DNA of 64,000 nucleotides. It comes from Sneathiella chinensis (GTDB taxonomy: Bacteria; Pseudomonadota; Alphaproteobacteria; Sneathiellales; Sneathiellaceae). The notes beneath the pieces were generated by a model. That model was not told where the DNA came from. It made no database searches and saw only the letters and a program-made list of their open reading frames with translations. The translations under genes were made by a program, and so were the position numbers. The DNA lies in contig NZ_VNWN01000006.1 in NCBI RefSeq assembly GCF_012720115.1, positions 248,001-312,000 of the forward strand. Reading direction: 5' to 3'. How positions within the stretch are numbered: the stretch's first letter is position 1; every line of letters begins with the position of its first letter. Shown piece by piece: positions 43,859 through 56,171 of the stretch.

Positions 43859-43935
43859 GGCCCCGTAGCTCAGCTGGATAGAGCAACAGACTTCTAATCT
43901 GTAGGTCGTACGTTCGAGTCGTACCGGGGTCGCCA
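43859..43935 (+). tRNA. tRNA-Arg (anticodon TCT)
   Basis: 77-base cloverleaf: acceptor GGCCCCG / CGGGGTC, D-stem GCTC / GAGC, anticodon stem ACAGA / TCTGT around CTTCTAA, T-stem GTACG / CGTAC with TTCGAGT, and an encoded CCA end. Reads AGA/AGG arginine codons. Confidence 0.97.
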
Positions 43936-43976: not shown

Positions 43977-44169
43977 GTTGCCTTTCTCGCCGTCATGGCG
44001 CAGCCAACTTCCAAGTCGGTCCCCGCGCGGGAGGCACGAGACATTCCTGCATTCAGGGGCAGGGCAGGGCGTCTTTCCGGGTAAAAGAACTGTGCCTATA
44101 AAAGACTTGCTCCGATTGCGTTCCGGGCATTATTTTCAATTAAATAGTAATTTTTGTGGGTGATTGAGA

Positions 44170-44613
44170 ATGAAGAGATGTCTGCTGGTATTGCCGCTTG
44201 CCTTGTCTCTGGTGCCGGCGATGTCACATGCCGAACCGGGACAAGCGGAAGAAGAACTTTCGGATCGCGGCAGGACGCTGGTGCAGTGTATGACGCTTTA
44301 TTCGGCGATCAAGGATGTGGTTGCTGATGAGAATGTGGAATTGAAAAGGCCGCAGACCATCACTCCAGACTCGCCGCGCATGCACATTCTCTATGCCAGA
44401 GCGAAAGAGCGGGAAGATCATTTTAATGTCGTGCTGGGTGGGCGTCTGGAAGACCTCACCATGAAGGAGTTCGCGGCAATCTATCCTGTAATGAAAGCCG
44501 AGGCCGCTGCCGGCTATCCGGATTTCAAGAACCTGTATGGTCCCTTTGAGACCTGTGATCAACAGCAGAAGTGGCTGCAGGAGCAGGGGATCGAGTTCAA
44601 CGCACAGTTTTGA
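44170..44613 (+). CDS. Secreted hypothetical protein
   Basis: 147 residues from ATG 44170 (MKRCLLVLPLALSLVPAMSHAEP), a clear signal peptide. The mature part is helical and charged, with two cysteines (CMTLYSAIKDVV near 41 and ETCDQQQKW near 130) that could form a disulfide. No family recognised. It converges with the pentapeptide-repeat array. Confidence 0.75.
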   Translation: MKRCLLVLPLALSLVPAMSHAEPGQAEEELSDRGRTLVQCMTLYSAIKDVVADENVELKRPQTITPDSPRMHILYARAKEREDHFNVVLGGRLEDLTMKEFAAIYPVMKAEAAAGYPDFKNLYGPFETCDQQQKWLQEQGIEFNAQF

Positions 44614-44670: not shown

Positions 44671-44707
44671 AAAAGCAGCGAGACAACGGTAACCTTGCTG
44701 CTTTTTT
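44671..44707. terminator. Terminator after pentapeptide gene 1
   Basis: AAAAGCAGC / GCTGCTTTT arms around an imperfect centre. It is similar to two other hairpins in the array and lies 27 bases beyond the stop of the minus-strand gene. Confidence 0.65.
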
Positions 44708-44733: not shown

Positions 44734-45663
44734 TCAGTCTTCCGTGCCTTCTGAGTCGTCCTCGCTTCCAGAAGTGATAAACTTGGGATTTGTAAGCTGG
44801 CAGTCCTCGAACTGCGGATCTCGAAGGGTTCTGGAATTGTATCTGCAGCGACGCATGTCGCATTTTTGAAACTCGGCATCATCCATACGCTTTACCTTCA
44901 GCATATCGGCCTCCTGCAGGTTGCAGGTGTTAAAATAGGGTCCTATCACGTCAAAATCCTTCATTTCAGAGCTGGATAGATCGCACTCTTTGAACTCAGG
45001 TTCTGCGCCCCATATTATGGAAAGTTTGGCGCCCTTAAAATTGACTCTTCGGAAAGAGGTCCCTTCGATTTCGATGTCGTGCAAGTGGATCCGTTCCATA
45101 TTTATCCCGGTTAACTCTGCATTGGTAAGGTCAACGTCGTTCAGGAAACCGCTTGGCAGAAAGCCCCCTAAAACCTGTATTCGTACGTCGTCGAGAATGA
45201 GTGATGTCAACGGCTCAGTTTCTATGCTGTTTGTGAATCTGCTGTCACTGAGTTTCGCTGAAATCATGGAAGTATCTTCAATTTTTATATTATCAAAAGT
45301 GACCCCTCTCATTGTGCTTTCATCGAAATTGGATCCGGTAATCAGGCTGTTCATCAAAGTGGCGTTTTCCAGATTGCTTCTGTAGAAGGTACAGTTCCTG
45401 ATTTCGCAATTTCGAAAATGAGTATTTTGCAGGGAAGCCTCACCAAGCTGGACGTTCTCAAGGTGGGTTCCATGCAGTATGGCGCCTGTCAAGTTGGCGC
45501 CCGTCAGGTTGGCGCCGACCATTCGCATGTCACTCAAGTCCGCATTTTCCAGATTGGCGTGACGCAGAAGGATCCCCTTTTCAAGGGCGTTCTGGAGGGT
45601 TCGTGAGATATCGGTGTTGTCGTCCTCGAAAAGGATAGTCCCGGACTGGTCGCGAATGATCAT
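44734..45663 (-). CDS. Pentapeptide-repeat protein 1, A/B chimera
   Basis: 309 residues, mostly A(D/N)LXX-type pentapeptides expected to fold as a right-handed quadrilateral beta-helix. The first ~25 residues (MIIRDQSGTILFEDDN) and the upstream leader match the A-type genes 3 and 5. From QNALEKGILLRHANLENADLSDMRM onward it matches the B-type genes 2 and 4, down to the acidic SEDDSEGTED end. It lacks about 100 central residues relative to B. It is the last gene of the array in transcription order and stands alone behind its own leader. Function unknown. Confidence 0.88.
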   Translation of the reverse strand: MIIRDQSGTILFEDDNTDISRTLQNALEKGILLRHANLENADLSDMRMVGANLTGANLTGAILHGTHLENVQLGEASLQNTHFRNCEIRNCTFYRSNLENATLMNSLITGSNFDESTMRGVTFDNIKIEDTSMISAKLSDSRFTNSIETEPLTSLILDDVRIQVLGGFLPSGFLNDVDLTNAELTGINMERIHLHDIEIEGTSFRRVNFKGAKLSIIWGAEPEFKECDLSSSEMKDFDVIGPYFNTCNLQEADMLKVKRMDDAEFQKCDMRRCRYNSRTLRDPQFEDCQLTNPKFITSGSEDDSEGTED

Positions 45664-45804
45664 GGAGGTAATCTTCCCAAGTAAAGCCTAAATAGAAATG
45701 ACTGTTTAAATTGGGTTTTGTGATTTTAAGGGCGTTAGATTTACGATTATTTTGAAAGTTTAAAGAGAGCGGATTCGCGTTTAATGGCGCGGTACTATGA
45801 AACG
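45664..45804 (-). repeat. Array leader repeat, copy 1
   Basis: Near-identical to 48241-48380 and partly to 50974-51060. Shared tracts include AAGTAAAGCCTAAATAGAAA, TGACTGTTTAA and TTTTGTGATTTTAAGGGCG on the plus strand. It is placed directly upstream of an A-type start each time, so it is likely a duplicated promoter and leader. Confidence 0.75.
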
Positions 45805-45842
45805 AAAAGCAGCGAGATGGGTGCAGTCTCGCTGCTTTTTTT
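45805..45842. terminator. Terminator after pentapeptide gene 2
   Basis: Arms AAAAGCAGCGAGA / TCTCGCTGCTTTT, thirteen-base perfect stem, with T runs on both strands. Lies 26 bases past the minus-strand stop. Confidence 0.85.
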
Positions 45843-45867
45843 ATGGATAGGGTCGTTTGGCCCGGCA

Positions 45868-47136
45868 CTAGTCTTCCGTGCCTTCCTCGCTCTCAGTATT
45901 CATGATCTCGGTATCTGTATACTCGCAGTTTCTGAATTCCGGAGAGTCGAAGTTTCCAACATCAAATCTGGCGCCGCGCATGTCACAGTTCTGGAACAGG
46001 GTGTCGTCCATACTCACCCGATCCAGCATGTTTGCCTCGCGAAGGTTGCCGTTGACGAACTCAGCCTCAATCAAGTGCACGTCCTTCATTTCACAATCAG
46101 AAAGATCACATTCGTTGAAGAAGGTGTCTTCGCCTCTTACGTTTGAAAGCACGGCTTCTTTTAAAATGACCCGCTGGAGGAGGGCTTTGTCGAGTGTGAG
46201 CCGGTCCACCTGGACCCGTTCCATATTTGTCCTGTTTACCCTTGCATGGGTAAGGTTGACGTTGTTCAGGATGGCACTTGGCATAAAGCCTGTCAAAATC
46301 CCGTTTCGTACGTCGTCAGACATGGCAGCGGCCAAAGGCTCGCTTTCCACACTATTTGTGAAATTGCAGTAAATGATGCCCGCAGATATCATGTGGGTGT
46401 TCTCAATCTTTACATTATGAAAAGTTACGCGCTTCATGTAGCTGTCGTTGAATGACGAGTGGTCAATCAGACTGTTCATAAAAGTCGCGTTTTCCAGATT
46501 GCTTTCGGTAAGCCAGGAGTTCAAGATTTCGCAATTGCGAAAGTCGGCACCTTTCATGTTGGCATTGTCGAAATTGGCAAAGATCAGCTGGCAATGGTGG
46601 AATTTTGCAGCCTCCAGATTTGCCTTTGAAAATTTACTGTCCCTGATGACAGCGCCATGGAACTTGGCATTTGTTAAGACGGCTTGGGAGAAGTCCGACC
46701 GTTCCATATGTATAGTTTGCAAGGAAGCGCCATCAAGGTGGGCGTGCCTGAAGATACTTTGACTTACTGTGGCGTTATCCAGATTGCTCCGCAATAGCTC
46801 GGCTTTTGTAAAATTTGCATGTGTAAGGGCGGCTTTTTTGAGGGTTGCGCCTTCAAGATGGGCGTTCTCAAGATTGGCTGCATGCAGATTGGCATTGTCC
46901 AAATTGGCGTTTGTCAGGTTGGCGCGTGCCAACCGGGTTCTGCTCAGGTCGGCGCCTGACAGGGTGGCGCCCGTCAGATTGGCACCGTACATTCGCATGT
47001 TACTCAAATCCGCATTTTCCAGATTGGCGTGAAGCAGCAGGATCCCTCTTTCAAGGGCGTTCTGGACACAATCCTTGAGGATCAAACTATTGTCCTCAAA
47101 GATCACGGAGTTATCGTTGACGTTCAATATGCGCAT
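45868..47136 (-). CDS. Pentapeptide-repeat protein 2, B-type
   Basis: 422 residues. An N-terminal B-type cap (MRILNVNDNSVIFEDNSLIL) is followed by a long run of pentapeptides such as ANLTGATLSGADLSRTRLARANLTNANL, then less regular coils, and an acidic end (NTESEEGTED). It has the same length as gene 4 and is clearly paralogous to it. It is probably the second gene of a two-gene unit with gene 3 (54-base gap). No enzyme domain, signal peptide or membrane segment. Related repeat proteins can mimic DNA or act as scaffolds, but no specific role is supported. Confidence 0.92.
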   Translation of the reverse strand: MRILNVNDNSVIFEDNSLILKDCVQNALERGILLLHANLENADLSNMRMYGANLTGATLSGADLSRTRLARANLTNANLDNANLHAANLENAHLEGATLKKAALTHANFTKAELLRSNLDNATVSQSIFRHAHLDGASLQTIHMERSDFSQAVLTNAKFHGAVIRDSKFSKANLEAAKFHHCQLIFANFDNANMKGADFRNCEILNSWLTESNLENATFMNSLIDHSSFNDSYMKRVTFHNVKIENTHMISAGIIYCNFTNSVESEPLAAAMSDDVRNGILTGFMPSAILNNVNLTHARVNRTNMERVQVDRLTLDKALLQRVILKEAVLSNVRGEDTFFNECDLSDCEMKDVHLIEAEFVNGNLREANMLDRVSMDDTLFQNCDMRGARFDVGNFDSPEFRNCEYTDTEIMNTESEEGTED

Positions 47137-47190
47137 GGTGGTCTCTTTTGGGGGCTGAAAACCGTGAGGCGTTGCTGGAGTGGAGAGGTT

Positions 47191-48240
47191 CTAGGGAATG
47201 AGGCTGTAGTTCTGGTTCAGAACCTGATTTCTGAAAGCGTTTATGGTTTTATCGGACGCGCCAGTTGTTTTTACCTCTGCCTGATCAGCGTTTGCCCCGT
47301 CGAAATCGACAGCCTGACACGTGCTGAGATCCAGTTTTGCGTGTGAAAGGTTGGCGCCGGACATGTCCACATTATTAAGTTTTTCAGCCTCGTTAAAATT
47401 CGATTCTGAAAGGTCGGCGTTCTTAAAGCTGGTCTGTGTGAGGTCTGAATGTTGGAAGATACTTTTCTTGAGGTTGGCGTCAGTGAATTGTGTTTGGAAA
47501 AGGGTCGAGGCGCGAAACAGAGCTCCATTCACATTGTAGTCGTTTACAATCCGGTTCAGCAGGCGTTCGCCGCCAGCGACTTTAAAGAAATCGTTGGGCA
47601 GCTCACTGTCAAGGTCTTGATCATAAAAGACCGCATCTTCAAATTGTCCGCTGTCAAGTTTGCATTGAATAAACCATGCGCGCGCAAAATTGGCGTTGTT
47701 GGCCATTGTTTGATAAAAGCTCACATTCTCGAAACAACAGCATTTCAGGCTCGCCTCCATTAAATTTGTCCATTCCAGGATGCAAGACGACAGGGTGGCC
47801 TGATCAAAGTTTATTCTTCTCATAAAGCCCTCCGTATAGTCAGTATCCGAGATGGTCGCTTCCTGAAAGGTAGCGCCTTCCAAGTTTGCCTGATTCAGTA
47901 AGCATTTATGGATAACAGACTGATGGAAAATTGATTGTCTCAGTTCTGTGCGCTTGAGGTTGGAGTTGTTGAGCTTGGCACCTGTGAAATTGATTCCGGT
48001 CAGAAATGCATGCTTCAGATTGACGGATTGAAGATTGGCATGAGACAGGTTGGCATATGCGAGGTCGATCCCTCGCAGATTAAGATGACTCTTTTGCGGA
48101 TCGTCATTGTGGATATGGACCCCTTCGAGATTTGCATAGGCCAGAGAAGCTCCTTGATCGCGGGCGTTCTGGATGGTTTGTGAGATATTGGCATTGTCGT
48201 CCTTGAATAGGATCGTGCCGGACTGGTCGCGAATGATCAT
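47191..48240 (-). CDS. Pentapeptide-repeat protein 3, A-type
   Basis: 349 residues. An A-type cap (MIIRDQSGTILFKDDNANI) is followed by pentapeptide coils (IDLAYANLSHANLQSVNLKHAFL), a non-repeat insertion with LPNDFFKVAGGERLLNRIVNDYNVNGALF, more repeats, and a distinct tail (ASDKTINAFRNQVLNQNYSLIP) shared with gene 5. It is preceded by leader copy 2 and followed by gene 2. Confidence 0.92.
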   Translation of the reverse strand: MIIRDQSGTILFKDDNANISQTIQNARDQGASLAYANLEGVHIHNDDPQKSHLNLRGIDLAYANLSHANLQSVNLKHAFLTGINFTGAKLNNSNLKRTELRQSIFHQSVIHKCLLNQANLEGATFQEATISDTDYTEGFMRRINFDQATLSSCILEWTNLMEASLKCCCFENVSFYQTMANNANFARAWFIQCKLDSGQFEDAVFYDQDLDSELPNDFFKVAGGERLLNRIVNDYNVNGALFRASTLFQTQFTDANLKKSIFQHSDLTQTSFKNADLSESNFNEAEKLNNVDMSGANLSHAKLDLSTCQAVDFDGANADQAEVKTTGASDKTINAFRNQVLNQNYSLIP

Positions 48241-48380
48241 GGAGGTAATCTTTCCAAGTAAAGCCTAAATAGAAATGACTGTTTAACTTGGGATTTGTGA
48301 TTTTAAGGGCGTGCGATTTATAGTTATTTTGAAATTTTAAAGGGAGCAGGTTCGCGTTTGCCGGGGCGCCATTGGGAAAC
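48241..48380 (-). repeat. Array leader repeat, copy 2
   Basis: Matches copy 1 over almost its whole length with few substitutions, including the TTTAAGGGCG tract and the GCGTTT before the terminator hairpin of the preceding unit. Confidence 0.75.
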
Positions 48381-48381
48381 G

Positions 48382-48418
48382 AGAAGCAGCGAGATTGGAG
48401 CGATCTCGCTGCTTTTTT
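48382..48418. terminator. Terminator-like hairpin after pentapeptide gene 4
   Basis: AAGCAGCGAGAT / ATCTCGCTGCTT, twelve-base perfect stem. The T run is strong on the plus strand and weak on the minus strand. Homologous in sequence and place to the hairpin at 45805. Confidence 0.75.
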
Positions 48419-48443
48419 AGGGATGGGACAGTTTTGCCCGCCA

Positions 48444-49712
48444 CTAGTCTGCTGTGCTTTCCTCGCTCTCTGTATCGATGATTTCGGCATCTGTAAGGTC
48501 GCAGTCTTTGAAATTCGCTGAGGCGAAGTTTTTCGCATTAAAGAGGGTGCCGTGCATGTCACAGTTCTGGAACAAGGTTTTGGTCAAATTCACCTCTTCC
48601 AGCATGTTTGCTTTTTGAATGGTGCACTTGACGAACTCTGCCTGTCTAAAGTCACTGTCCTTCATTTCAGAACCGGAAAAATCGCATTCGTTGAAATCAG
48701 CAACCCTGCCCTCTACGTCTGAAAATAGGGCGCCCTTTAAATTGACCCTTAGCAGATTGGCGGTGTTTAGATTGGTTTTGTTGAACCGGACCCGTTCCAT
48801 ATTCGTGTCGTACAATTTTGTTGAGGTAAATTTGACATTGTCCAGAACGCCGCTTGGCGGAGCGCTTTCTAAAATCCCGTTCGGTACGTCATTCGGAAGG
48901 GGATATGGTATTGGGCCGCTTCCCAAGCTGCTGGTGAATTCGCAGTTAGCTATGTCAGATAACATTACTTGAGTATCTTTGATCTGGATATTGTGAAAAG
49001 TTATCTTCTTCAATCTGCTGTCATTGAAAATCGAACCGGTAATAAGACTGTCAGAAAAAGTAACGTTCGCCATGTTACTTCTGCCATAACGACATTCTAT
49101 GATTTCGCAACAGTAAAAGTAGGTACCTTGTATGGTGGCTTTCTTGAAATTGGATTTTATGATTTGGCAATGGTGAAACTCGGTAGACACCAGAGTTACC
49201 TTTGGGAGTTCACAGCAATCAATGACGGCGTAATCAAGGTGGGCTTGTGACAAGTCGGCGCCCCTGAAATCCGCACTTATAATGCATGTGTTTTTCATGG
49301 AGGCTTCATCAAGGTGGGCTTGTGTGAAGGAACAATTGACCAAATTGGCGTTATCCAGGTTGCAATGCCTTAGGTTGGCCTTATTGAAAAACGCATTTTC
49401 AGCATCGGCACCCCCGAGGGTCGCGCGTTCAAGATGGGCATCGTCGAGATTGAGGTGATGCAGTATGGCATTGTCCAGATTGGCGCCTGTCAGGTTAGCC
49501 CCTGCCAAATTGGCTGCGCTCAGGTTGGCGCCTGACAGGTTGGCGCCTGTCAGGTCGACGTTCAGCATTTGCATGCGGCTCAGGTCTGCATTTTGTAAAT
49601 TGGCGTGGTGCAGAAGGACCCCTTCAATTATGGCCTTCTGGATACAGTGTTTGAGGTCGGGGCTGGCATCCTCAAAGATTACGGAGTTGTCGTTGACGTT
49701 CAATATTTGCAT
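48444..49712 (-). CDS. Pentapeptide-repeat protein 4, B-type
   Basis: 422 residues, the same length as gene 2. A B-type cap (MQILNVNDNSVIFEDASPDL) is followed by regular coils (ANLSGANLSAANLAGANLTGANLDNA), irregular later coils and an acidic tail (DTESEESTAD). Aligned by eye with gene 2 it diverges through the middle but keeps the caps and the CDM/NCDMHG segment near the end. Second gene of the unit with gene 5 (58-base gap similar to that between genes 3 and 2). Confidence 0.92.
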   Translation of the reverse strand: MQILNVNDNSVIFEDASPDLKHCIQKAIIEGVLLHHANLQNADLSRMQMLNVDLTGANLSGANLSAANLAGANLTGANLDNAILHHLNLDDAHLERATLGGADAENAFFNKANLRHCNLDNANLVNCSFTQAHLDEASMKNTCIISADFRGADLSQAHLDYAVIDCCELPKVTLVSTEFHHCQIIKSNFKKATIQGTYFYCCEIIECRYGRSNMANVTFSDSLITGSIFNDSRLKKITFHNIQIKDTQVMLSDIANCEFTSSLGSGPIPYPLPNDVPNGILESAPPSGVLDNVKFTSTKLYDTNMERVRFNKTNLNTANLLRVNLKGALFSDVEGRVADFNECDFSGSEMKDSDFRQAEFVKCTIQKANMLEEVNLTKTLFQNCDMHGTLFNAKNFASANFKDCDLTDAEIIDTESEESTAD

Positions 49713-49770
49713 GGTGCTCTCTTTTATGGGCTGAAAAAAAACTTGAGGCGTTGCGGGGGATGGAGAGGTT

Positions 49771-50973
49771 CTAGGGAATGAGAATGTAGTTCTGGTTCAG
49801 AACCTGATTTCTGAAAGCATTGATGGTTCTATCGGACGCGCCAGCTGTTTTTACCTCTGCCTGATCAGCGTTTGCCTCGTCGAAATTGACAGCCCGACAC
49901 GCGCTGAGATCCAGTTTTGCATGTGAGAGGTTGGCGCCGGACATGAAGGTCCGCTCGATAGATTTAACTCTTCTCAAATTTGTCCCTTGCAGTTGAGCCT
50001 GAAAAAAATCTACAAATTTCAGGTCGCAGTTCTTGATCGTGATGCCGTTCATTTGTGCATTCACGCAGCAAACGTAAAACCAATCCGGTTCGTCACGAGA
50101 GGTCAGGGTGGTTGTCTGTGCCTCATCTTCCATCGGGAAAGTTTTTTCAAATTGTGCGCCGGTCAGGTCTGCGTTCGTGAACTTGGTGTGATGAAGTTTG
50201 GCGTTGATAAAGGTGCTTTTTCCAAGCCGTGCGTTGTCCAACCGTGTTCGGGTGAAGTCGGTGTCAGAAAACAGCGAGCCGTTCACATTGAAGGCGTTTA
50301 CCGTCTGGTTCAGAAGGGGCTCGCCCCCGAGGGCGGCGAAGAAACCTTGGGGAAGGTCGTGGTCGGGATTGTCATCATTGAAGATTGACCCCTGCAATTT
50401 TGCGCTATCCAGATGGCAATGATTGAACCAACTGCGGGCAAAGTTAGCTGCCCTTGCTTCCAGATTGCAAAGGCTGACCATTTCTAGATGACATTGCTTC
50501 AGGCTTGCGCCGTTCATAGTGGTTTGGTCGAAGATGCAGGATTTCAGTGTTGCCCCATCCATGTTGATCCGCGGCATCCTGGCGTCGACAGCTTGGCATT
50601 CTGTCAAGGTTGCATCCTGACAGTGAGCATTTTCCATGAACGCCCCCTGTAACGCACAACCATGGATTGTTGCGCTTCTGAAGGTGGAGTGGTTCATGAA
50701 GGCGCGGCCAAGATTGCAATTCGTTAGCGTCGCGTCGTCGAAACGGACCTGCTCCATTTCTGCGTATCTGAGGCTGACAGTGTGCAGGGAAGCATGGGAA
50801 AGGTTGGCGTGGTTGAGGTCGAGCCCGTCCAGATCCGCGTTTTTCAACTGGACCCCTGCGAGATTAGCATGGGCCAGGGAAACCCCCTGATTGCGGGCGT
50901 TTTGGAGGGTTTGGGAAAGATTGGTATTGTCGTCTTCGAAAAGGGTATTTCCGGCCGTGTCGCGAATGATCAT
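49771..50973 (-). CDS. Pentapeptide-repeat protein 5, A-type
   Basis: 400 residues from ATG 50973 (MIIRDTAGNTLFEDDN); the frame runs to 51000 but the paralogues start here. It holds A-type coils, the insertion LPQGFFAALGGEPLLNQTVNAFNVNGSLF, and the shared tail ASDRTINAFRNQVLNQNYILIP. Relative to gene 3 it has about 50 extra residues, including DEPDWFYVCCVNAQMNG. It is the first gene of the array in transcription order, with a leader related to copies 1 and 2. Confidence 0.92.
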   Translation of the reverse strand: MIIRDTAGNTLFEDDNTNLSQTLQNARNQGVSLAHANLAGVQLKNADLDGLDLNHANLSHASLHTVSLRYAEMEQVRFDDATLTNCNLGRAFMNHSTFRSATIHGCALQGAFMENAHCQDATLTECQAVDARMPRINMDGATLKSCIFDQTTMNGASLKQCHLEMVSLCNLEARAANFARSWFNHCHLDSAKLQGSIFNDDNPDHDLPQGFFAALGGEPLLNQTVNAFNVNGSLFSDTDFTRTRLDNARLGKSTFINAKLHHTKFTNADLTGAQFEKTFPMEDEAQTTTLTSRDEPDWFYVCCVNAQMNGITIKNCDLKFVDFFQAQLQGTNLRRVKSIERTFMSGANLSHAKLDLSACRAVNFDEANADQAEVKTAGASDRTINAFRNQVLNQNYILIP

Positions 50974-51060
50974 GGAGGTGTTCTTCCAAGTAAAATGCAA
51001 ATAAAAATGACTGTTTTACTTGGGGTTTGTGATTTCGAGAGCGCGGGTTATATAAATATT
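50974..51060 (-). repeat. Array leader repeat, copy 3 (diverged)
   Basis: Keeps CATGGAGGT, CCAAGTAAA, AATGACTGTTTTACTTGGGG and TTTGTGATTT blocks of the other two leaders but is otherwise diverged. This suggests it is the older copy or under less recent exchange. Confidence 0.6.
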
Positions 51061-51113
51061 TTGTAAATTTCCAGCGGTCGGGTTAGTGTTTTCTAAAAAA
51101 GGGGAGGGAAATA

Positions 51114-52129: not shown

Positions 52130-54958
52130 TTAGCGGTCGGTGTCGAGGGCGGTGCGGATATGCGTTGCCAGTTCAACCCGGCTGTAGGGTTTGTTCAGCA
52201 TATTGGCGGTGACTTCTGACAGGAAGCCATCGCCCCCTGCCAGTTTCTTTTCCCGGTTGCGGGTAAAGCCGCTGGTGAGCAGGATGCGCAAGTCTGGATG
52301 CTTTTCGCGGGCCTGCCGTGCCAGTTGGTAACCGTCCGTATCGCCGGGCATGATGATATCGCTGAACAGCAGGTCTATTGAATTGTCATCCGACAGGATT
52401 GTCAGTGCCTCGTCAGCGGAATTGGCCGCGTGAACCTCGTATCCCAGTGAGCCAAGGAAGGTGACGGCAAAATCCAGCAGGCCCTTTTCATCATCCACAA
52501 CAAGAATTTTTTCGGATCCGACGGGCATCCGTTGGGGGAACGGAGCAGCTTGGTGATGGATCGTTTCCTCGGCGGTGACGCGGGGCAGGTGGATATGGAA
52601 TGTGGTGCCTTTCGCGGGTTCGGAATAGATCTGGATATGGCCGCCGGACCGCTGCACAAAGCCATAGACCATGCTGAGACCAAGCCCGGTTCCCTGACCG
52701 GTTTCCTTGGTGCTGAAAAACGGTTCGAAAACCCGCTCCCGCACATCTTCGGTCATGCCGGTGCCGGTGTCACTGACCGAAATGGTGACATATTCTCCTT
52801 CGGTGAAGCCGGGATGTTGGCGGGTGAATTCTTCATCGAACACCTGATTTTTCGTCTCGATGACAAGAGAGCCGCCCGAAGGCATGGCATCGCGAGCATT
52901 CAGGGACAGGTTCAAAAGCGCATCCTGAAGATCACCGGTATCGATGGAGACGGCCCACAGATCACTGCTGAGATGGGTGGCCACCTCGATGGCAGCGGTG
53001 AGGGGCTTTGAGATCAGGTCCAGCAGATTGAGGATCAATTCATTGACTGACGCAATGCGGATTTCCTGCGCGTCCTGACGGGAGAAACCAAGAAGTTTTC
53101 GGGTGATATCGGTTCCGCGTTCTGTTCCCCTCAGCGCGTTCCGAATGCGGTGCAAGGCAACCGGGTCGCCCTGCAAGGTTTCTTCCAGAAGTTCAAGATT
53201 GCCTTGAATAATACCGAGGATATTATTGAAATCATGGGCAATTCCGCCGGTAAGTTGTCCGATGGCTTCCATCTTTCGGGAGCGGCGCAGGGCTTCCTCT
53301 GCCCGCCGCAGGCCGGTCACATCCCGCCCCACACCCCGGTATCCCTTGAACCGCCCGTCCGCATGGAAGATGGGCTTTCCGTTCAGGGAGACATAGCGGA
53401 CTTCCTTGTCCGGGCGGACCCAGCGGAACAGGAAATCCGTAAAAGGATGATGATTTTCCAGCAGGTCCTTGTGGGCTTGCCATTGGGCTGGCTCCACCGG
53501 CTCCATGTCCTCGTAGATTTCTTCGCGGGTGCGCCCCATAAGCTGGTCAGGCGTCAGGCCTGCGACTTCTTCGACACTGCCCATGATGAAGTTGAAGCGG
53601 AGTTCATCATCCGTTTCCCAGAACCAGTCGGCGCCGTTTTCCGCGAAATCGCGGAAGCGTTCCTCGCTTTCCTGATGGGCCAGTTCCGCCCGTTTCAGGC
53701 CGGTGATATCCGTCGACAGCGAGATTGTCGAGCCATCGCCAAGGCGTTGTTCATGCACCAAAAGCCATTCGTGTTCGCCATGCTTGCGAATTTCAAGGGG
53801 ACCGTCCGGGGCCTTGCGGTGTTCCAACCGGCGCCGAACAAATTCTTCTTCCCGTCCCTTGGCATCGGGAAAGATATTTCGGCTGACAGCGCGGCGGATC
53901 AGTTCCTCATAGGTAATACCGGGTACAAGAAGGTCTGCAAGCCGCCAGTTCTTTTTCTGAAACCGTTTGTTGCAAAAAACAAAGCGGTCGTCCTTATCAA
54001 ACAGGGCGACGCTTTCCTGAATGGTGTCGATTGCCTCCGTCAGGCGGGTGGCGACTTTCTGACGCTCCGTCAGTTCGGCAACCTGTTCCTCAATGGTCTG
54101 GGTGAGGGCGTGGCTTGCCTTTTCCAGTTCCTTCTGTGTGTTTTTTAGCCGGGTAATGTCGGTGAAAGTGCTGACAAAGCCGGTATTGGTCGGCACCCGG
54201 ACAATTTTGAGCACATCGCCATTGGGGCGGGTATGCTCGAAATTGGTATAGGTCTGGCTTTTTGCCTGTTCCAGCCTCTCTTGCGCCTGTGCCTCGGGAT
54301 CGCCCGGGCCATATTCCCCGCGCGCGGCATGAAAGCGGAAAATGTCGATCATCTTCGTGCCCGGCTGTGCCAACCGTTCAGGCAGATCCAGAAGGATGCA
54401 GGCGCGGGCATTGGCGGCCTCAATCACCAGATCCCGGTTGATCATGAAAATTCCGCTTTCCACATTGTCGATAATGGTTTCCAGAATTTCGTTATGGCGT
54501 TGCAGTTCTGTCCGCGCTTCTTCAATCTGCTGTGCCTGTTTGCGGTTCTTGCTATCCAGCGCCTCGTTCAGTTTTTGAAGATGCAGGCCGGTTTCCTGTT
54601 CGCGGGTGATATCGCTGTAAGTGCTGATCAGCCATCCGTCATCGGTGAAGTTGCCGTGGATACGGATGGATTTGCCGTCTGCGTTGCGGCGGATATAGGT
54701 ATGAACGGATTTTGAGGTCAGGTCCTGAAGGTGGCGTAAAACAAGCTCTTCCGGATCGCCAGGGCCATAGTCGCCGCGCTCGGCGTGAAGACGCAGCAAG
54801 GATTTGATGTGAACGCCGGGCTGGCACAGGCTGTCGGGTATCTTGAGGAGTGTCCGCGCTTTATCGTTGCAAGCCACATATTCCAGTTTCTCGTCGAAAA
54901 TGGTAACGCCGTGCTGAACATTTTCAATTAACTCAAGGACTCTGAGCTGCTTTGTCAT
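52130..54958 (-). CDS. Multi-PAS hybrid histidine kinase with receiver domain
   Basis: About 942 residues from ATG 54958 (MTKQLRVLELIENVQ); the frame extends to 55075 with no family character. Two PAS_7-type repeats (each with FxxHAxRGxYGPGDPE), a third PAS and a fourth PAS with PAC come first. They are followed by HisKA (His in GGIAHDFNN near 573), HATPase (NARDAMPSGG, DTGTGMTEDV, GTGLGLSMVYGF) and a receiver with phospho-acceptor Asp in LLFSDIIMPGD near 866. No membrane segments, so it senses a cytoplasmic signal. No response regulator lies beside it. Confidence 0.93.
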   Translation of the reverse strand: MTKQLRVLELIENVQHGVTIFDEKLEYVACNDKARTLLKIPDSLCQPGVHIKSLLRLHAERGDYGPGDPEELVLRHLQDLTSKSVHTYIRRNADGKSIRIHGNFTDDGWLISTYSDITREQETGLHLQKLNEALDSKNRKQAQQIEEARTELQRHNEILETIIDNVESGIFMINRDLVIEAANARACILLDLPERLAQPGTKMIDIFRFHAARGEYGPGDPEAQAQERLEQAKSQTYTNFEHTRPNGDVLKIVRVPTNTGFVSTFTDITRLKNTQKELEKASHALTQTIEEQVAELTERQKVATRLTEAIDTIQESVALFDKDDRFVFCNKRFQKKNWRLADLLVPGITYEELIRRAVSRNIFPDAKGREEEFVRRRLEHRKAPDGPLEIRKHGEHEWLLVHEQRLGDGSTISLSTDITGLKRAELAHQESEERFRDFAENGADWFWETDDELRFNFIMGSVEEVAGLTPDQLMGRTREEIYEDMEPVEPAQWQAHKDLLENHHPFTDFLFRWVRPDKEVRYVSLNGKPIFHADGRFKGYRGVGRDVTGLRRAEEALRRSRKMEAIGQLTGGIAHDFNNILGIIQGNLELLEETLQGDPVALHRIRNALRGTERGTDITRKLLGFSRQDAQEIRIASVNELILNLLDLISKPLTAAIEVATHLSSDLWAVSIDTGDLQDALLNLSLNARDAMPSGGSLVIETKNQVFDEEFTRQHPGFTEGEYVTISVSDTGTGMTEDVRERVFEPFFSTKETGQGTGLGLSMVYGFVQRSGGHIQIYSEPAKGTTFHIHLPRVTAEETIHHQAAPFPQRMPVGSEKILVVDDEKGLLDFAVTFLGSLGYEVHAANSADEALTILSDDNSIDLLFSDIIMPGDTDGYQLARQAREKHPDLRILLTSGFTRNREKKLAGGDGFLSEVTANMLNKPYSRVELATHIRTALDTDR

Positions 54959-55140
54959 AATTTCAGGAACTTCCAGATCGCTCTTTTCTTTTATCGGGAG
55001 GCGCTCACCGGAAACGCACCATACTGGGGAAATTACACATATTATTCTTTCAATGAATAGAACAACGATCGTCAAGTCAAACGAAACTATGGCTTTTTAC
55101 GGAACAAGCCCGTTCGGGTGAGGAAGACGCGGGACGGTTT

Positions 55141-56043
55141 CTATTCATCCCAATAGGGGGTGTCGCCAAGGAAGGCACTGAGATAATCAATAAAAACCCG
55201 CACACGCTGGGTCAGGAACCGGGTATGAGGATAGACCGCATAGGCCCCAAGTTCCGTGCAGCCATAATCCGGCAACAGCCGTACCAGACGGCCATCCTGC
55301 AACGCGCGCCAGGCGATGAAGCTGGGCATCAGGTAGATGCCGTGCCCGGCGATACAGGCTTCTTTCAGGAAATCCCCGTTATTGGCCCGCATGCCGGTCC
55401 TGCCGGCAATTTCATGGGGCCTGCCTTCGGCATCGGTCAGGTGGTGGACCCGCCCGGTGGGACTTTTATAGCGCAGCAATGTATGAGAGGCGAGATCGGC
55501 CGGGGTTTCGGGAACGCCGTTCGCCGCCAGATAGGCGGGGCTGGCGCACAGCACATGGCGGATTGTGGTAAGGCGCCGGGCGATCAGGGTTGAATCCGAC
55601 AGTTCCGCGATACGAATGGCAAGATCGACGCCTTCCTCAATCAGGTCAATTTGCCGGTCCGCGAAACTGAGGTCAATGACAAGGTCCGGGTGGCAGGCCG
55701 CAAACTCGTTCACGGCGGGGGCAAGATGTAACAGCCCGAAAGACAGCGGAACCGCGACCTTCAATGTTCCCTTCAATTCGCCAACATCAAAGCAGAGCGC
55801 ATCATTCAGGTCATCCACCTGCGACAGGATGGATTGGGTGCGCCCGTAGTAAAGGCGTCCCGCTTCGGTCAGGGTGGAGGAGCGGGTGGTCCGGTTGAGC
55901 AACTGCACCCCAAGCCGGGTTTCCAATTCGTTCAGGCGGCGGCTGACCGCAGATTTGGCAATGCCAAGCTGTCCGGCGGCGGCGCTGATCCCGCCGGTTT
56001 CAACGATCTTGGCAAACACGGCCATGTCTTCAAGCTGTCCCAT
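55141..56043 (-). CDS. LysR-family transcriptional regulator
   Basis: 300 residues from ATG 56043 (MGQLEDMAVFAKIVETGG), with the upstream in-frame region rejected. The N-terminal winged helix (ISAAAGQLGIAKSAVSRRLNELETRLGVQLLNRTTR) is followed by a substrate-binding domain. It is divergent from the pirin gene with a 128-base space, the classic place for the LysR-controlled target, so control of the pirin and glutathionyl-hydroquinone reductase genes is likely. Confidence 0.93.
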   Translation of the reverse strand: MGQLEDMAVFAKIVETGGISAAAGQLGIAKSAVSRRLNELETRLGVQLLNRTTRSSTLTEAGRLYYGRTQSILSQVDDLNDALCFDVGELKGTLKVAVPLSFGLLHLAPAVNEFAACHPDLVIDLSFADRQIDLIEEGVDLAIRIAELSDSTLIARRLTTIRHVLCASPAYLAANGVPETPADLASHTLLRYKSPTGRVHHLTDAEGRPHEIAGRTGMRANNGDFLKEACIAGHGIYLMPSFIAWRALQDGRLVRLLPDYGCTELGAYAVYPHTRFLTQRVRVFIDYLSAFLGDTPYWDE

Positions 56044-56171
56044 ATTTATTGTTCTAATACCAAGAACAGAGTTTTGCAAATATGAATATTTATTCACTTA
56101 ATTAGATCGAATATAGTGCTTTCAGTAATCCTCTGGAAGATCAGGCGAGGCCTGGGAAAGGATGTGGACCG

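What the first reader, a model, noticed from the sequence alone, without database searches (positions are those of the whole stretch)
44734..50973. Five tandem pentapeptide-repeat genes alternating between two protein types
Read in transcription order the genes are A (50973-49771), B (49712-48444), A (48240-47191), B (47136-45868) and an A-started chimera (45663-44734). A-types share the cap MIIRD..G..LF.DDN, a ..FF...GGE.LLN insertion and a ..INAFRNQVLNQNY.LIP tail. B-types share a ..ILNVNDNSVIFED cap, 422-residue length and an acidic tail. The intergenic gaps (58 and 54 bases) match too, so an A-B unit was duplicated as a whole. Strict pairing suggests A and B work together, for instance as a heteromeric beta-helix assembly. 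Function unknown; gyrase or DNA mimicry is only one option.
Basis: partly seen in the sequence, partly recalled or inferred. Interest (0 to 1): 0.75.

Follow-up and report, generated by a model that had tools for sequence, protein, structure and literature searches.

The report
Recombining array of paired pentapeptide-repeat genes
A Sneathiella-like bacterium carries a small, probably laterally acquired cluster of paired rod-shaped repeat-protein genes whose ends stay alike while their middles have diverged fast, as in a set of binding proteins that is being varied; what they bind is unknown.

Summary
Five intact pentapeptide-repeat genes lie at the stated coordinates in the order A1-B1, A2-B2, C3. 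A and B form separate groups, and C3 is an in-frame A/B fusion whose joint lies in a 12-base word shared by A2 and B2.

'One unit duplicated, therefore a heteromer' is incomplete. Between units the A tail and the A-B gap are near-identical in DNA (46 of 50 same-residue codons identical), while the A middles are far more diverged (57 of 109). So the ends were exchanged or homogenised after duplication. B1 and B2 differ at half their residues without a gap; omega is about 1.0 at outward and 0.39 at inward positions. An ordinary pentapeptide-repeat protein of the genus gives 0.06 outward at similar silent divergence. Other pairs in the array are intermediate (0.33-0.60).

No counterpart was found in 23 congeners, some of them incomplete drafts. 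The array lies beside a tRNA-Arg that has integrase genes next to it in two of seven congeners inspected. The A tail has no clear relative in 385 sampled class genomes, so pairing cannot be tested by co-occurrence.

Best reading: cytosolic HetL-like solenoid binders, varied by recombination and fast surface change. The function is not shown.

The parts
49771..50973 (-). A1, capped pentapeptide-repeat protein, 400 aa, first gene of unit 1
48444..49712 (-). B1, capped pentapeptide-repeat protein, 422 aa, second gene of unit 1
47191..48240 (-). A2, 349 aa, first gene of unit 2
   Evidence: fold model
45868..47136 (-). B2, 422 aa, second gene of unit 2
   Evidence: fold model
44734..45663 (-). C3, 309 aa, A leader and first 22 codons fused to a shortened B body
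45585..45596 (-). TCCAGAACGCCC, the 12-base joint of C3; the same word lies at 48162-48173 (A2) and 47055-47066 (B2)
50974..51091 (-). leader of A1, with a 10-bp hairpin just before the start region
   Evidence: repeat D7; fold (z -2.25)
48241..48359 (-). leader of A2 (repeat D7)
   Evidence: weaker hairpin, z -1.53
45664..45782 (-). leader of C3 (repeat D7, 89% to the A2 copy)
   Evidence: hairpin no better than shuffles, z -0.47
48384..48414 (-). terminator-like hairpin after B1
   Evidence: fold z -6.5; not flagged on this strand by the consensus scan
45805..45839 (-). terminator-like hairpin after B2
   Evidence: fold z -6.0; flagged on the + strand only
44671..44705 (-). terminator-like hairpin after C3
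   Evidence: fold z -2.0; not flagged
47181..47365 (-). homogenised block: A2 tail and start of the A-B gap, 94% identical to 49761-49945 in unit 1
   Evidence: repeat D8
43859..43935 (+). tRNA-Arg (TCT), conserved left flank of the insertion site

Best explanation
The locus is a lineage-specific, probably laterally acquired array beside a tRNA-Arg. It makes co-transcribed pairs of cytosolic, capped pentapeptide-repeat solenoids. Shown by sequence: two unit copies plus a fused third; near-identical unit ends with diverged middles; a solenoid core that changes less than the surface; preserved length and reading frames in B1 and B2. Inferred: each unit is transcribed from its own leader, and the proteins are rigid binders whose outward faces grip and block other macromolecules, in the way known pentapeptide-repeat proteins act as decoys or antagonists. 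Recombination between the alike ends copies, deletes and fuses units, and fast change of the outward faces alters what is bound. The partners are probably changing ones, as in conflict or immunity. A and B probably act together, but not obligatorily, since unit 3 has no A body.
Against: Omega near 1 is also what loss of constraint on the surface gives; values clearly over 1 were not shown. Only B1/B2 reaches 1: B2/C3 0.60, B1/C3 0.58, A1/A2 0.33, with omega = 1 rejected for these three. Face-by-face conservation was not significant (P 0.07 and 0.09). No defence family matched, no toxin or integrase lies in the array, and no direct repeat of the tRNA was found. No promoter-like site was flagged at the leaders. 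No binding partner is known.
Confidence: 0.4

Rival explanations
1. A and B are the two halves of a fixed heteromeric beta-helix assembly, and the array only raises the dose or gives isoforms.
For: A and B sit in one unit with short like gaps twice. Caps and tails, the likely contact ends, are the best kept parts.
Against: Two pairs are one ancestral pairing, not two. C3 stands without an A body. The homogenised A tail includes the noncoding gap, so DNA exchange explains its likeness without a protein contact. A1/A2 differ by whole coils while B1/B2 do not differ in length.
Confidence: 0.2
2. Relaxed repeat proteins: an acquired array that duplicates easily and drifts, with little or no function for the outward faces.
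For: Omega about 1 outward in B1/B2; array absent from congeners.
Against: All five frames are open; B1/B2 keep exact length over about two neutral changes per codon, and inward positions stay constrained; three other pairs are under purifying selection on average.
Confidence: 0.2
3. Topoisomerase protection by DNA mimicry, as in Qnr, MfpA and AlbG.
For: Same fold class (AlbG, QnrB1 and MfpA among the matches); proteins acidic, pI 4.6-5.6.
Against: Best Qnr score 94.9 against a cut-off of 240, best MfpA 72.1 against 360. No face is strongly acidic in both B1 and B2 (face charges +2 to -5), and about 8-9 of B's 20-21 net negative charges lie in the last 20 residues.
Confidence: 0.1
4. Exported effectors, with cap or tail as an export signal.
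Against: The window's genome has no match for the VirB4 family PF03135 or the type VI sheath family PF05943; the A and B tails are unlike the G026 tail; no signal peptide is apparent by eye.
Confidence: 0.07

Closest known systems
HetL (3du1), capped pentapeptide-repeat protein of Nostoc
   Different: Best score against the HetL model 136.5, cut-off 260; HetL is a single shorter protein, not a recombining pair array.
Tandem capped pentapeptide-repeat genes of unnamed alphaproteobacterium G026
   Same: Cap profile matches (17 at E <= 1e-6, only 17 of 181 candidates scored); tandem genes with alike caps and tails and more diverged middles.
   Different: No A/B alternation seen in the five stretches fetched; other tails; gaps of mostly 14-15 bases; G+C 0.36 in L056.
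Qnr / MfpA / AlbG topoisomerase protectors
   Same: Right-handed quadrilateral helix.
   Different: Far under the family cut-offs; larger; two solenoid segments split by a poorly predicted linker.
YjbI-type secreted pentapeptide-repeat protein
   Same: Fold class; a likely homologue with a signal-like N terminus sits elsewhere in this genome and in the genus.
   Different: The array proteins start directly with the cap; they evolve far faster.

Membership tests
Pentapeptide-repeat superfamily (PF00805) | Profile match over the curated cut-off | tested here: met
   5 of 5 proteins over the cut-off
Pentapeptide-repeat superfamily (PF00805) | Right-handed quadrilateral beta-helix | tested here: met
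Qnr / MfpA gyrase protectors | Score over the NCBIfam family cut-off | tested here: not met
   Best Qnr 94.9 of 240; best MfpA 72.1 of 360
Qnr / MfpA gyrase protectors | Acidic DNA-like surface | tested here: inconclusive
   Face charges from sequence only, B1 and B2 only
Qnr / MfpA gyrase protectors | Acts on DNA gyrase | not testable with these tools
   needs an assay
HetL equivalog | Score over the NCBIfam cut-off | tested here: not met
   Best 136.5 of 260
HetL equivalog | Capped pentapeptide-repeat fold | tested here: met
Alr5209 family | Score over the NCBIfam cut-off | tested here: not met
   Best 112.2 of 125, the nearest miss
Known anti-phage systems | Match in PADLOC-DB, or to Hailong HalA in NCBIfam | tested here: not met
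   0 of 5 proteins match in PADLOC at E <= 1e-3; HalA best 62.4 of 250
YjbI-type secreted proteins | N-terminal secretion signal | tested here: not met
   By eye only: proteins begin with the cap strand; no signal predictor was at hand
Knotted Solenoid (PMC13123833) | Skip-and-backtrack coil order with a trefoil knot | not tested

The most novel reading that the evidence does not exclude
A bacterial cassette system that varies paired solenoid binding proteins: constant ends serve as recombination handles, whole A-B units are gained, lost and fused (C3 is one product), and the outward faces change under selection by a changing partner such as a phage protein or a rival's toxin. The capped arrays of G026 would be a second, independent case.
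Probability: 0.17. Interest if true: 0.75.

Novelty: new variant of a known kind. Interest (0 to 1): 0.45.

Why it matters
The functions of most pentapeptide-repeat proteins are unknown (review PMC8145042, abstract and passages). An array in which unit ends are exchanged while one pair of solenoids reaches outward omega about 1, ten or more times that of an ordinary family member in the same genus, points to the outward faces as the part that matters or is free. It gives a small, concrete set (A1/A2, B1/B2, C3) for finding partners and for testing whether such solenoids serve as variable binders.

Tried and rejected
Led nowhere: relatives of A1 in genome contigs and of A1, A2, B1 and B2 in viral contigs: none confirmed; these scans reach close relatives only. 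Cap in phage records: one weak match, without most of the cap; cap in plasmids: none; a G026 cap in phages: none. PHROGs gave families of unknown function plus one weak tail-fibre hit. Secretion: no VirB4-type or type VI sheath match in the window's genome.

Rejected: DNA mimicry as first choice. Knotted Solenoid: seemed possible from a search listing; parts 1-3 of 8 of PMC13123833 describe much smaller proteins; not tested by topology. Pfam matches to SV2 luminal domain (over the cut-off in 4 of 5) and to the Choristoneura antifreeze family (over the cut-off in B2 only) were taken as cross-matches between repeat folds, since no single stretch passed. tRNA-derived attachment repeat: no 12-mer of the tRNA elsewhere in the window. 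Conserved face: not significant.

Discarded result: the first omega fit had not converged (negative likelihood ratios) and was replaced.

Control limits: silent sites are saturated (t 6.6-46.5), and 19 comparisons cover 17 genomes because two genomes were entered twice. In one search only the 22 most alike of 136 pairs were fitted, and most are saturated too; the two nearest in silent divergence to B1/B2 (t 2.0) have t 2.7 and 3.3. In one search the 55 gene pairs are not independent. These controls are orthologues, whereas B1/B2 are paralogues.

Literature: nine searches. Pentapeptide repeat with tandem and diversifying selection: 0 papers. With gene conversion and paralogous: 2 papers, of which the one listed is on a green alga. 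Sneathiella with pentapeptide: 2, neither on this by title. That such an array is unpublished rests on these searches of an open-licence library only.
Full report
Observation. Five pentapeptide-repeat ORFs lie on the minus strand at 50973-49771, 49712-48444, 48240-47191, 47136-45868 and 45663-44734 (400, 422, 349, 422 and 309 aa). All are over the PF00805 cut-off. A1 and A2 share 54% of aligned residues, B1 and B2 50%, A against B under 30%. With the C3 cap removed, A1+A2 separate from B1+B2+C3 at 100/100.

Host and setting. The window is part of a 3.55-Mb assembly. The neighbouring 318-aa protein finds Sneathiella species and unnamed alphaproteobacterial assemblies as its best matches, 78% in its best segment for S. 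glossodoripedis, and 23 further genomes of the same genus are held. The species was not determined. The array lies between tRNA-Arg (TCT) at 43859-43935 and that 318-aa gene. In 3 of the 12 congener stretches fetched (L118, L119, L121) the same flanking genes lie 0.8 to 3.1 kb apart without the array; other small genes occupy that space, so it is not a clean empty site. In the other 9 stretches the 318-aa gene was not matched. Searches with A1 and B2 in 23 congeners, several of them incomplete, gave only repeat-region matches, best E 1.5e-15 for A1 and 8.4e-23 for B2, against 2.9e-69 and 1.9e-117 for the in-array paralogues; the listings were cut. At the same tRNA two of seven congeners inspected have a phage-integrase gene or fragment, 55 and 239 bases away. 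G+C is 0.47-0.52 in the array and 0.53-0.60 in 15 other window genes. Lateral gain at an integration hotspot is therefore likely, though no attachment repeat was found and the array has no mobility gene.

Units. Leaders of about 108 bases are repeated before A1, A2 and C3, 76% and 89% to the A2 copy (D7). Hairpins that fold well below shuffles follow B1 and B2 (z -6.5, -6.0) and, less clearly, C3 (z -2.0). The consensus scan flagged none of them on the coding strand and no promoter at the leaders, so the three transcription units are an inference.

Chimera. C3 matches A2 at 58 of 67 bases before the word TCCAGAACGCCC and B2 at 88 of 101 bases after it. The word occurs in the whole window only in A2, B2 and C3, always on the minus strand and in the same codon phase. 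A deletion between A and B of one unit through this word gives C3's start without further change. C3 also lacks coils that B1 and B2 have.

Ends against middles. Comparing unit 1 with unit 2, DNA identity is about 0.9 across the A tail, the A-B gap and the B start, 0.77-0.83 across leader and A start, 0.72-0.81 at the B end, and mostly 0.45-0.70 in the middles. Counting only codons for the same residue (not M or W), 46 of 50 are identical in the A tail, 57 of 109 in the A middle, 114 of 159 in the B middle, against 0.37-0.38 expected by chance; tail against middle P 3e-7, B middle against A middle P 0.002. Parts of one unit thus have different silent ages. The likeness reaches into noncoding DNA, which points to DNA exchange and not only to protein constraint. 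The longest exact repeats, 35 and 34 bases, lie 2577 and 2580 bases apart, one unit length.

Fast surface change. With a codon model sharing silent divergence, B1/B2 gives omega 0.39 at inward and 1.02 at outward repeat positions (two against one omega: 37.1; profile drop 4.6 at 0.7 and 3.0 at 1.4). B2/C3 gives 0.27 and 0.60, B1/C3 0.26 and 0.58, A1/A2 0.14 and 0.33; for these three omega = 1 outward is rejected (6.4, 6.4, 25.1). The repeat register came from a simple scoring scheme of mine, with consensus recalled. Controls: the 267-aa pentapeptide-repeat protein elsewhere in this genome against its counterparts in 17 congeners gives outward omega 0.04-0.23, with silent sites saturated. Between congeners, the pair nearest in silent divergence (t 2.7, against 2.0 for B1/B2) gives 0.05 and 0.06 with 90% identical residues. 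So B1/B2 changed protein sequence far faster than an ordinary member. Whether this is selection for change or loss of constraint on the surface cannot be told from two copies. Preserved length over 422 residues and five open frames argue against decay.

Relatives. The A tail matched only this genome clearly among 385 class genomes, with two matches near E 8e-4. The cap profile matched 5 of 385 class genomes at E <= 1e-6: this one, G026 with 17, and three of one other family with one each; in a phylum sample 1 of 398, this one. G026 has tandem capped genes, 11 complete in one 11-kb stretch, with silent identity 0.75 in cap and tail and 0.62 in the middle, a weaker version of the same pattern. 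It also has a second cap type, and one protein carries both tail types.

Function. Commitment: variable binding rods, 0.40, with the steps marked as shown or inferred above. Fixed heteromer 0.20, drift 0.20, topoisomerase protection 0.10, export 0.07. Known family members with a defined action work by binding through the solenoid, for instance gyrase inhibitors (PMC8145042, passages); that is the ground for 'binder'.

Novelty. The proteins belong to a known superfamily. The alternating pair array with exchanged ends, an in-frame A/B fusion and fast outward change is, as far as the nine searches of an open-licence library show, not described; I call it a new variant of a known kind.

Noticed in passing
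It looks like a portable C-terminal module.
   Followed up: partly
L117 6104-7309 and L116 6166-6450: Integrase gene and integrase fragment right after the same tRNA-Arg in two congeners: an integration hotspot of the genus.
   Followed up: partly
window 52130-55075: A PAS hybrid histidine kinase between the 318-aa gene and 55141-56097; in L118, L119 and L121 these two flanking genes are adjacent without it, so it is a second lineage-specific insertion or a loss elsewhere.
   Followed up: no
window 44164-44613: A 149-aa protein with a signal-like start between tRNA-Arg and the array; no Pfam or NCBIfam match and no match in the 41 loci compared.
   Followed up: no
L062 814-1617: A 267-aa pentapeptide-repeat protein with a signal-like N terminus, counterparts found in 17 congeners; resembles the YjbI-type secreted protein studied in Caulobacter (PMC12864828, abstract and passages).
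   Followed up: partly
window 50974-51030, 48241-48300, 45664-45723: A hairpin in each A leader whose 3' arm touches the likely ribosome-binding GGA; strong in A1, weaker in A2, not above shuffles in C3.
   Followed up: partly
L092 10001-10935: The counterpart of the 318-aa neighbour gene in S. glossodoripedis matches in two pieces of different identity (78% and 59%) and has no single long ORF, so it looks broken or mis-assembled.
   Followed up: no
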